A DNA stretch of 64,000 bases from positions 1-64,000 of the forward strand of contig OMXZ01000002.1 of assembly GCA_900315165.1 (NCBI GenBank), written 5' to 3'. The DNA comes from an uncultured Actinomycetes bacterium. GTDB lineage: Bacteria > Actinomycetota > Coriobacteriia > Coriobacteriales > Atopobiaceae. The notes under the pieces are model-generated. The model had not been told where the DNA came from, made no database searches, and was given only the letters and a program-made list of their open reading frames with translations. This document shows positions 1 through 7,779 of the stretch, piece by piece. How positions within the stretch are numbered: the first letter of the stretch is position 1; the number at the start of each line of letters is the position of its first letter. The position numbers and the translations under genes are program-made.

Positions 1-96
1 TGGGACGCGATGGTCCGCCGCGCGATGGGCCGCGACTTCAGCTGGAACGTCTCCGCCAAGAAGTACGAGGACCTCTATCGCCAGATGGTGGGGTAG
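1..96 (+). CDS. glgA: Glycogen synthase, C-terminal fragment
   Basis: The window opens inside a gene; frame 1 reads WDAMVRRAMGRDFSWNVSAK and continues to a TAG at 94-96. The AM-x-DFSW-x-x-SA-x-x-Y-x-x-LY pattern is the usual last helix of bacterial ADP-glucose glycogen synthase (GT5), which extends alpha-1,4-glucan chains in the cytoplasm. Only 31 residues are visible, so the call rests on this tail alone. The gene is convergent with the zinc-ribbon gene that ends at 427, and the gap between them is filled by a palindromic repeat array. Confidence 0.72.
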   Translation, partial: WDAMVRRAMGRDFSWNVSAKKYEDLYRQMVG

Positions 97-187
97 GGCA
101 CCGCACCCGCAACGTATCTTGTTCGCTTGGGTAGTGAGCCTCATGTTCACGGCACCCCATGCGCCGTGGGCTGCGGACGTCTCCGAT

Positions 188-410
188 TGACAGCGAATAC
201 GTAGCGACTGCAGCAAGTACGTTGTGCCTGACAACGAGTACGTTGCCATTGACAAAGAATCCGTCGGATTGCGACCTGGTGGCGGAAAAACCGCTTCCTA
301 GCTCACGATTCGACGGACTTGTTGTCTGGTGCTACGTACTGGTTGTGTGCGGCTACGTACCCGATGAGGACGCAACGGATTTGTTGCAGCCACAACGGAG
401 TCGTTGCAGG
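188..410. repeat. Large imperfect palindrome built of ~21-bp repeats
   Basis: Four forward units lie end to end at 188-208, 209-228, 229-249 and 250-269 (best copy TGACAACGAGTACGTTGCC). Five reverse-complement units follow at about 308-326, 328-347, 350-368, 369-389 and 390-410. Forward and reverse units mirror each other around position 288-289, where GCGG-AAAAA-CCGC (282-294) forms a small hairpin. A degraded fifth forward unit may lie near 169-187. The array fills the 330-bp gap between convergent genes; I see no gene or canonical terminator there. The period of about 21 bp equals two helical turns. Function unknown. Confidence 0.8.
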
Positions 411-426
411 CGGAAGGTCGTGCTCG

Positions 427-1497
427 CTAGTCGTTGCCCGTACCGGTGCCGGCCTCGAAGCTATTGGCGACGGCTGTGACGTACGGCATCATCTCGCTCT
501 TCTCGGACTCCTTGTAGTAGATCACGAGAAGCTGGACGGTGTCGTTATTGACGAGGCCGCGGATGTAGACGAGGTCGCCGTCGTCGTCCGCCTGGGTGCC
601 CTCGAGGGTGAAGGAGTCACGATCGGCCTGCACCACGTCGAGGCCGAAATCGGCGTAGTCGTCGTTGTTGTTGGCGAACCACTCGCCCCAGCCCTCGGCA
701 TCGTCGCCGTCGGTGTTGGTACCGCCAAAGGCGATTGCGATCATGTAGGGGTCGGAGCTGTCATAGTACAGGCGGCCGTCGGTGTCCTCCTCGGTCATGC
801 TGGGCAGGGGGCAGAAGGAATAGCCATAGCCGTTTGTCTCGTCGGTCACGCGGTCGGCGAGTTCGACACCCGACGTGTCGACGGCCGGGGTGTCGGAGCC
901 GCCGCCGCTCTTGCCGCTCAGCAGGACGAAGCCGCCCACGGCGACGAGGGCGATCACGATGGCGATGATGATGCCGCGGACCGGAGACTTCTTCTGGACG
1001 GGAGCGGGCTGGTAGCCGGCCTGGTAGGGTTGGCCGCCCTGCTGGAACTGGGGCTGACCCTGCGGGGTGCCGCCGTACTGATACTGCTGATACTGCTGCT
1101 GCGGCTGAGGTTGAGGTTGCGGCTGGGGCGCCCCATAGGCGTACTGCTGCGGCTGCGGCTCGGGCTGGGGCTGCGAGGTGTACTGGAACTGCTGGGGCTC
1201 GGGCGTCGGCGCAGCCTGGACCGGCTGGGGAGCGGGCTCGGGCGCCGAGGCAGGCTCAGGCTCCGGCTGAGCCGGCTCCGCTATCGGTTCGGGCTGGGGA
1301 GTGGGCTCTGGCTGAGGAGCAGGCTCGGGTTCGGGCTGGACCGGCTCGGGCACAGGCTCTGGCTGGATCGGTTCAGGCGTCGGCTCGGGGGCGGGCACAG
1401 ACTCGGGCTGAGTAGAAGCCGCTTGCAGTGGGGCGCCGCACGAGCTGCAGAAATGGGCGCCGTCAGGATTTTCCGAACCGCAGTTGGGACAGTACAT
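427..1497 (-). CDS. Zinc-ribbon membrane protein with Pro/Gln-rich linker (paralogue 1)
   Basis: A 356-residue protein. An N-terminal zinc ribbon has Cys3/Cys6 (CPNC) and Cys17/Cys20 (CSSC). It is followed by a long low-complexity Pro/Glu/Gln linker (about 25-165), one hydrophobic segment (about 170-195) and a C-terminal domain that should lie outside the membrane. That domain shares DRVTD-TNGYGYSFCPLPSM and DGRLYYDSSDPYMIAIAFGG with the next gene, so the two are tandem paralogues. An AAGGAG Shine-Dalgarno (complement of 1503-1508) precedes the ATG. Zinc-ribbon plus single-TM proteins are common in Gram-positives, but I cannot assign a function. The linker is much longer than in the paralogue. 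Confidence 0.85.
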   Translation of the reverse strand: MYCPNCGSENPDGAHFCSSCGAPLQAASTQPESVPAPEPTPEPIQPEPVPEPVQPEPEPAPQPEPTPQPEPIAEPAQPEPEPASAPEPAPQPVQAAPTPEPQQFQYTSQPQPEPQPQQYAYGAPQPQPQPQPQQQYQQYQYGGTPQGQPQFQQGGQPYQAGYQPAPVQKKSPVRGIIIAIVIALVAVGGFVLLSGKSGGGSDTPAVDTSGVELADRVTDETNGYGYSFCPLPSMTEEDTDGRLYYDSSDPYMIAIAFGGTNTDGDDAEGWGEWFANNNDDYADFGLDVVQADRDSFTLEGTQADDDGDLVYIRGLVNNDTVQLLVIYYKESEKSEMMPYVTAVANSFEAGTGTGND

Positions 1498-5103: not shown

Positions 5104-5473
5104 CGCAGATTTCTGTAAATCCCGTATGCGGGTGCGATACTTATTGATATGGGCGTGGCCTGTCGTACCCGCAAGTCCCTTTTGCAGAGATTTGCAGTGA
5201 TAGCCGCATGCGGGCTCGATTCACCCCGCGTCGGGATCGCACCGGTCGCAGGTGCCAGTCAATGGGCGAATCACAAACAATGCCACATTGCAGCGAATTC
5301 CCGATTTTCTGACTATGAGTGCGCAGTGTGGGTCGCCGACACTGGCCGGGATTGTTCATTCAGGGTCGGTTAACAGCAAATCGCTGCAAACGGAGCCTGT
5401 TTGCACGGTCGCCCGCGTTCGAAGCAGAGTGTGCCGCGCATTCGGGGTCGGGAAATCGGAAATTTCCTGCAAC
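5104..5473. repeat. Large degenerate palindromic repeat region between htpG and ligA
   Basis: This fills most of the 438-bp gap 5104-5541, where I see no gene. Forward units lie at about 5105-5140, 5181-5218 and 5287-5325, and reverse-complement units at about 5374-5390 and 5435-5473. The clearest pairs are 5181-5197 with 5374-5390 (15 of 17 complementary) and 5287-5325 with 5435-5473 (about 29 of 39). Near the midpoint CAGTGT (5324-5329) and ACACTG (5339-5344) form a perfect 6-bp hairpin. The units are longer and more decayed than in the 188-410 array, but the forward-left, reverse-right layout is the same. Confidence 0.6.
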
Positions 5474-5508
5474 CGGGGCACAAATGCACAGGACGACGCT
5501 TGCGGTAG

Positions 5509-7779
<2,271 letters not shown>

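What the first reader, a model, noticed from the sequence alone, without database searches (positions are those of the whole stretch)
171..410. Giant mirrored palindrome made of ~21-bp repeats in a convergent gap
Seen directly: four tandem forward units and five reverse-complement units mirror each other around 288-289 to within about 1 bp, with a GCGG-A5-CCGC hairpin at the centre. The period equals two helical turns. It occupies the whole gap between glgA and the zinc-ribbon gene. Neither a simple terminator nor a CRISPR array has this layout. It could be a bidirectional terminator, a folded RNA, a protein-binding array or a mobile-element relic; all of these are inference.
Basis: partly seen in the sequence, partly recalled or inferred. 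Interest (0 to 1): 0.8.

Follow-up and report, generated by a model that had tools for sequence, protein, structure and literature searches.

The report
Mirrored repeat arrays at gene ends
The mirrored repeat is one of about 25 related mirror-image elements scattered in this bacterium's genome, always lying just after genes; they probably stop transcription from both sides, and their evenly spaced repeats look like binding sites for an unknown factor.

Summary
The element (window 189-408) has four units and a half-core on the left, exactly mirrored by a half-core and five units on the right, about 288.5. It is not unique. The genome holds about 23 full copies, sister species G002 at least 18, and the more distant G035 about 11. 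Three congeners have none, and none was found outside the family among 397 genomes of the order. All copies share an 18-bp inverted core around an 8- or about 18-nt centre, plus 20-21-bp units pointing at it. The core covaries (69 double-change cells versus 32±4.5 shuffled). In the main class of this genome the mirrored arms do not, although their motif is conserved between loci whose spacers have diverged to background. So the core is kept as a hairpin, and the arms look like sequence-specific binding sites, not a long stem. All 47 orientable copies lie downstream of genes (23 convergent, 24 tandem, 0 divergent), with T-enriched DNA after the core on both strands. G002 has a terminator-like stem-loop, and no array, in the same glgA gap. 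Best reading: a lineage-specific family of dispersed bidirectional terminator-like elements with a factor-binding array. REP-like in placement, not a tagged REP. Function is inferred; there are no RNA data.

The parts
189..408 (.). whole mirrored element (four units + half-core / half-core + five units)
   Evidence: R1 match 222-355 in both orientations
189..204 (+). left unit GACAGCGAATACGTAG
   Evidence: sequence
209..224 (+). left unit TGCAGCAAGTACGTTG
   Evidence: sequence
230..245 (+). left unit GACAACGAGTACGTTG
   Evidence: sequence; exact match to the unit consensus
251..266 (+). core-proximal left unit GACAAAGAATCCGTCG
   Evidence: sequence; same register in all copies
262..279 (+). 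left half-core CGTCGGATTGCGACCTGG
   Evidence: 3 mismatches to the family core; covarying stem
280..297 (.). 18-nt centre holding the small hairpin GCGG-AAAAA-CCGC (282-294)
   Evidence: 18-nt class of the family
298..315 (-). right half-core (CGTCGAATCGTGAGCTAG on the - strand)
   Evidence: 0 mismatches
311..326 (-). core-proximal right unit
   Evidence: sequence
332..347 (-). right unit
353..368 (-). right unit (degenerate)
   Evidence: sequence
373..388 (-). right unit
393..408 (-). fifth right unit, without a left partner
1..96 (+). 3' end of glgA (glycogen synthase), cut by the contig start
   Evidence: same C-terminus as the full glgA of G002
427..1497 (-). zinc-ribbon protein gene, convergent neighbour
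   Evidence: PF13240; orthologue in G002, 64% identical

Best explanation
The element is one copy of a dispersed, dyad-symmetric repeat family of this Coriobacteriia family (probably Atopobiaceae). It most likely works as a bidirectional transcript 3'-end/termination element. RNA polymerase arriving from either gene transcribes the same kind of RNA: inward-pointing units, then the core hairpin, then T-enriched, reverse-complement units. The core folds into an 18-bp or longer hairpin that stalls polymerase over the U-rich first unit; the further 20-21-nt units repeat the chance to stop. Shown: the family, its symmetry, the covarying core, the placement at gene 3' ends, T-enrichment on both sides. 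Inferred: that transcription ends here, and that the arms, whose motif is conserved without arm-to-arm covariation in the main classes, bind a sequence-specific factor (DNA roadblock or RNA-binding protein) that assists.
For: Family and distribution. Placement: 47 orientable copies in three genomes are 23 convergent, 24 tandem, 0 divergent, against 3 convergent, 43 tandem, 4 divergent neighbour pairs in the window; in tandem gaps the core is nearer the upstream stop in 20 of 24, sign test p 8e-4. Core covariation: 21 double-change cells vs 12.4 (sd 3.0), 0/500 shuffles (loop-8 class), and 69 vs 32.2 (sd 4.5), 0/500 (all classes). T-tract score after the core stem on both strands: class means 1.60, 1.68, 3.00 and 1.67 vs background 0.42 (95th percentile 1.41); class c passes it in 18 of 18. 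G002 has no array in the orthologous glgA gap, but a stem-loop followed by TTGTTTTTGTTTGG in the glgA direction. The window gap has no other canonical terminator on either strand. Arm motif: 40 arms, between-locus identity mostly 0.5-1.0 at motif positions vs 0.25-0.37 at spacers; mirrored arms do not covary in class a8 (z -0.7, -0.8, +0.6) while the core does (z 3.8).
Against: No transcript 3'-end data exist here. The T-tracts of the window copy are weak (scores 0.63 and 1.12), and only about half of the a8, a18 and d sites pass the background 95th percentile. REP-type repeats show the same 3'-end bias without being shown to be terminators. The G.U versus A.C mismatch ratio on the sense strand is barely skewed (24 vs 18 in tandem gaps), so RNA-level rather than DNA-level pairing is not proven. 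The outer a18 unit shows some arm-to-arm excess, and class d arms are anti-correlated and class d core shows no excess (8 copies). Gene context rests on a home-made gene caller. No trans-acting factor was identified.
Confidence: 0.5

Rival explanations
1. Non-autonomous mobile or selfish palindromic repeat (REP/MITE-like) that survives at gene 3' ends because insertion there is harmless.
For: Dispersed copies with genome-specific classes; patchy distribution (present in G000, G002 and G035, absent in G001, G003 and G004); presence/absence difference at the glgA gap.
Against: No fixed outer ends (unit number per arm varies); target-site duplications were not seen but not searched systematically; no Y1 transposase in G000 or G002; no phage or plasmid match; spacers between copies are at background identity while the motif is conserved, so copies are not simply recent duplicates; the eno and buk positions are occupied in both species.
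Confidence: 0.25
2. Chromosome-organising or insulating DNA element: a phased (20-21 bp, two turns) array of binding sites for a DNA protein, unrelated to RNA structure.
For: Exact mirroring; 21-bp period; centre length changes by about one helical turn (8 vs 18 nt); motif conserved without arm pairing.
Against: The core covaries, which plain protein-site conservation does not predict; some centres are 19-23 nt and some a18 units 19 bp apart, breaking phase; the 3'-end placement needs another reason.
Confidence: 0.15
3. Recombination or cassette site (attC- or att-like) where accessory genes insert between two arrays.
For: Accessory genes flanked by direct-repeat arrays: Fic and AAA-ATPase/PD-(D/E)XK genes in G035 with closely similar arrays, an AbiEi-like gene in G002 where G000 has one array.
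Against: Most copies sit alone beside housekeeping genes; the AbiEi-like family is absent from array-rich G000 and present in array-free G001; homologous recombination between repeats or independent insertion explains the cases; no integrase was sought.
Confidence: 0.07

Closest known systems
Repetitive extragenic palindromes / BIMEs (GTAG- and CGTC-tagged REPs, PMC3733652)
   Same: Dispersed palindromic repeats, predominantly between convergent and unidirectional genes and close to 3' ends, often in opposite-orientation pairs; terminator or mRNA-stability roles proposed.
   Different: Not a 20-40-bp stem-loop with an unpaired GTAG/CGTC tag: a 44-54-bp core plus mirrored 20-21-bp unit arrays, about 25 copies, no Y1/RAYT transposase in G000 or G002.
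Bidirectional intrinsic terminators of convergent genes (PMC5381666, PMC1852404)
   Same: Shared hairpin between convergent genes, compensatory changes in the stem, T-rich DNA on both strands (class c strongly so).
   Different: Extra arrays of sequence-conserved units; weak T-tracts in the window's own class; a repeat family rather than unrelated hairpins.
Paired DNA-uptake-sequence terminators (Neisseria, Pasteurellaceae; PMC1852404)
   Same: Inverted copies of a genome-specific motif sit at gene ends and may terminate.
   Different: The unit is not scattered genome-wide: all 8 matches with at most one mismatch lie in four of the mirrored arrays.
Clustered-hairpin terminators (PMC8355165)
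   Same: Several structure units acting together downstream of a stop codon, poly-U trail not needed.
   Different: Here one central hairpin with symmetric repeat arms rather than side-by-side hairpins.

Membership tests
Tagged REP (GTAG/CGTC) | 20-40-bp stem-loop with an unpaired GTAG or CGTC tag at one end | tested here: not met
   The CGTC-like start of the half-core is base-paired with its mirror (columns 16-19 with 71-74); the half-core is not itself a stem-loop. Definition.
Tagged REP (GTAG/CGTC) | intergenic, between convergent or unidirectional genes, near 3' ends | tested here: met
   23 convergent, 24 tandem, 0 divergent
GTAG REP / REPIN | cognate RAYT (Y1_Tnp, PF01797) in the genome | tested here: not met
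   no Y1_Tnp match in G000 or G002 (G000 is 88.7% complete)
Bidirectional intrinsic terminator | stable, evolutionarily maintained hairpin | tested here: met
   core covariation, 0/500 shuffles
Bidirectional intrinsic terminator | T-rich tract directly after the stem on both strands | tested here: inconclusive
   enriched in all classes, strong only in class c, weak in the window copy; no canonical terminator called in the window gap
Bidirectional intrinsic terminator | transcripts of both genes end there | not testable with these tools
   no RNA data
CRISPR array | near-identical direct repeats in one orientation with unique spacers of similar length | tested here: not met
   units 66-80% alike with 4-6-nt gaps, inverted about a centre
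Known Rfam RNA family | match to a covariance model | tested here: not met
   no match for window 1-700 at E<=0.5 or for array loci at gathering scores, tRNAs aside
attC / integron cassette site | associated integron integrase and cassette array | not tested
   no integrase search was made; only some arrays flank accessory genes

The most novel reading that the evidence does not exclude
The arms are cognate sites for an unknown sequence-specific factor that loads symmetrically on either transcript (or on the DNA) and makes the core a factor-assisted, bidirectional terminator/insulator; element classes co-evolve with factor specificity, so orthologous gene ends carry different classes in sister species (bipA end: class a8 in G000, class c in G002).
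Probability: 0.3. Interest if true: 0.75.

Novelty: new variant of a known kind. Interest (0 to 1): 0.5.

Why it matters
Dispersed palindromes at gene ends are common in bacteria, but their function is mostly guesswork. This family separates two signals inside one element: a core kept by base pairing, and arms kept by sequence alone. It also shows element classes switching at orthologous gene ends between sister species. If the arms bind a factor, this would be a factor-assisted, direction-independent way of ending transcripts between convergent genes, testable by reporter and pull-down. If they do not, it is a case of a dispersed repeat possibly taken on as a terminator.

Tried and rejected
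Coding repeat: the 21-bp period is 7 codons and several loop-8 copies stay open, but third codon positions (the C and A of CTC-GTA) are among the most conserved and both strands carry the same motif, so rejected. Long arm-to-arm RNA stem as the selected feature: mirrored arms show no excess pairing in classes a8 and c. RAYT mobilisation: no Y1_Tnp. AbiEi-like protein as cognate factor: absent from G000, present in array-free G001. DNA-uptake motif: not scattered outside arrays. Phage or plasmid origin: no match. Rfam: nothing relevant. A viral-contig pattern scan failed on syntax and was not repeated. A first covariation count was out of register by one column and was redone; classes c and d were out of register and were redone. 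Literature on Coriobacteriia/Olsenella repeats: no paper found in the held library.

Full report
OBSERVATION. Four left units (189-266) face five right units (311-408) about 288.5; unit centres are 30, 51, 72 and 92 bp from the centre on both sides, and a fifth right unit stands at 112. Between them are two inverted 18-bp half-cores (262-279, 298-315) and an 18-nt centre with GCGG-A5-CCGC. The unit gives 6 matches in 64 kb against 0.34 expected. Folding of 97-426 is far beyond shuffles on both strands (z -7.1 and -5.0). The upstream gene is glgA: its C-terminus matches that of the complete glgA of sister genome G002. The downstream convergent gene is a zinc-ribbon protein.

IT IS A FAMILY. Searching the own genome with the unit found three further mirrored arrays: after enolase, after an M20-type peptidase gene and after a butyrate-kinase-type gene (gene names from the translations read by eye). 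The core (CGTCGAWTYGYGARCTAG, up to 3 mismatches) is commoner: 41 hits in G000 against 9 with the reversed control pattern, and background counts in congeners G001, G003 and G004. A covariance model of 18 copies with an 8-nt centre (R1) finds about 23 full copies and 2 partial ones in G000, many in G002, none in G001, G003 or G004. A core model over all classes (R2) raises G002 to at least 18 loci and finds about 11 in G035 and a few in other genera of the family. Among 397 genomes of the order, no genome outside the family matched at E<=1e-4. The contig length of G035:C21 (140,986) equals that of OMVJ01000005.1, titled uncultured Olsenella sp. RUG004, so the family is probably Atopobiaceae; this is an inference.

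ANATOMY. Four sequence classes share one plan. Class a8 (most G000 copies): core around 8 nt, units [G]AC[A/G]ACGAnC[T/A]CGTAGnnnYn at 21-bp spacing. Class a18 (the window copy; eno and buk ends in both species): 18-nt centre, units CAACRARTACGTnG at 19-21 bp. Class c (G002): core CGCAGAAGTGCGCGTTTGGAG, A-rich units, T-rich flanks. Class d (G035): units of ATCAnTnCG type, with two different arm types that face each other. Genus g4 has core-like hairpins, in one place three in tandem at 72-bp spacing.

CORE VERSUS ARMS. The core covaries: 21 double-change cells against 12.4 (sd 3.0) shuffled in class a8, and 69 against 32.2 (sd 4.5) across classes, with sliding controls far below. The mirrored arms of class a8 do not (z -0.7, -0.8, +0.6 for units 1-3, core z 3.8), nor those of class c (core z 3.5, arms -1.7 to -0.2). 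In class a18 the outer unit shows some excess (z 1.6 or 3.3 by the two shuffles, 9 copies). Class d arms are anti-correlated and its core shows no excess (8 copies). Across 40 a8 arms the motif is conserved between loci (identity mostly 0.5-1.0) while spacer positions are at 0.25-0.37. Recent duplication would keep spacers; selection for pairing would make arms covary. Neither is seen in a8, so the arms look like sites recognised by sequence. That step is inference.

CONTEXT. All 47 orientable copies in G000, G002 and G035 are intergenic and downstream of at least one gene: 23 convergent, 24 tandem, 0 divergent; 23 to 0 has p about 1e-7 if convergent and divergent gaps were equally likely. In tandem gaps the core is nearer the upstream stop in 20 of 24. 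The window itself has 3 convergent, 43 tandem and 4 divergent neighbour pairs. T-tract scores after the core stem are 4-7 times background on average, strongest in class c. With a lax rule, 35 of 51 gene ends have a terminator-like site inside the array span and 18 outside it; the window gap has none.

SISTER SPECIES. Arrays sit at the eno and buk ends in both G000 and G002 (flanks 86-95% identical). The bipA end carries class a8 in G000 and class c in G002; the hisI end carries a8 and a18. The glgA gap of G002 has no array, but a stem-loop followed by TTGTTTTTGTTTGG in the glgA direction and another long palindrome. So positions can be kept while the class, or the kind of element, changes. 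This fits a replaceable 3'-end function.

MECHANISM. I commit to bidirectional 3'-end formation by the core hairpin, helped by the arms (0.5). From either side polymerase makes the same kind of RNA: motif units, hairpin, U-rich reverse units. What is shown is placement, symmetry, covariation and T-enrichment. What is inferred is termination itself and the factor. The G.U to A.C mismatch ratio (24 to 18 on the sense strand of tandem copies) does not decide between RNA and DNA hairpins.

RIVALS. A mobile REP-like repeat shares the 3'-end bias (PMC3733652), but no Y1 transposase is present in G000 or G002, outer ends are not fixed, and phages and plasmids have no match. A recombination-site reading rests on accessory genes between direct-repeat arrays in G035 and G002; ordinary homologous recombination explains these. 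A purely DNA-level insulator remains possible.

LIMITS. G000 and several comparators are draft genomes; gene context used a simple codon-usage gene caller; copies within one genome are not independent; shuffles do not correct for relatedness; the classes were defined after looking at the data.

Noticed in passing
L110:1770-1944, L126:1662-1836, L116:1677-1838: A second, about 170-bp structured intergenic repeat (GGCCGCGTGCGGG...CCCGCACGCGGCC, 79-83% identical) lies directly beside three arrays; no Rfam match.
   Followed up: partly
L074:1241-1512 (G002 glgA gap): A different long palindrome (GGGTTTTCCGCAGATTTGCGGAAAACCC within ATTACCC/GGGTAAT) takes the array's place in the sister species.
   Followed up: partly
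window 5104-5541: The htpG-ligA gap carries CGTACCCGCAAG and TTTGCAG motifs that seem to recur in G002 (L138:241-480, 2641-2900), possibly another dispersed repeat family.
   Followed up: no
L191, L192, L195-L198, L163 (G035): Class d elements pair two different arm types (GCCGTTTGGATCATTCCG versus GAAGTGCGAACTTCGTTACG); left and right arms are anti-correlated, so these elements seem to have a direction.
   Followed up: partly
L191:2600-7000; L192:2200-4500; L165:2400-4300: Accessory genes (Fic, AAA-ATPase/PD-(D/E)XK, AbiEi-like) flanked by direct-repeat arrays, closely similar in G035.
   Followed up: partly
window 427-1497 and 1671-2714: Two tandem zinc-ribbon paralogues with about 70% identical C-terminal domains.
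   Followed up: no
L194:1840-2060 (genus g4): Three core-like hairpins in tandem at exactly 72-bp spacing downstream of a gene.
   Followed up: no
L161 (G081:C114) versus L120: A flank 93% identical over 960 bp between genera while the array beside it has diverged much more; recent transfer, or a misbinned contig.
   Followed up: partly
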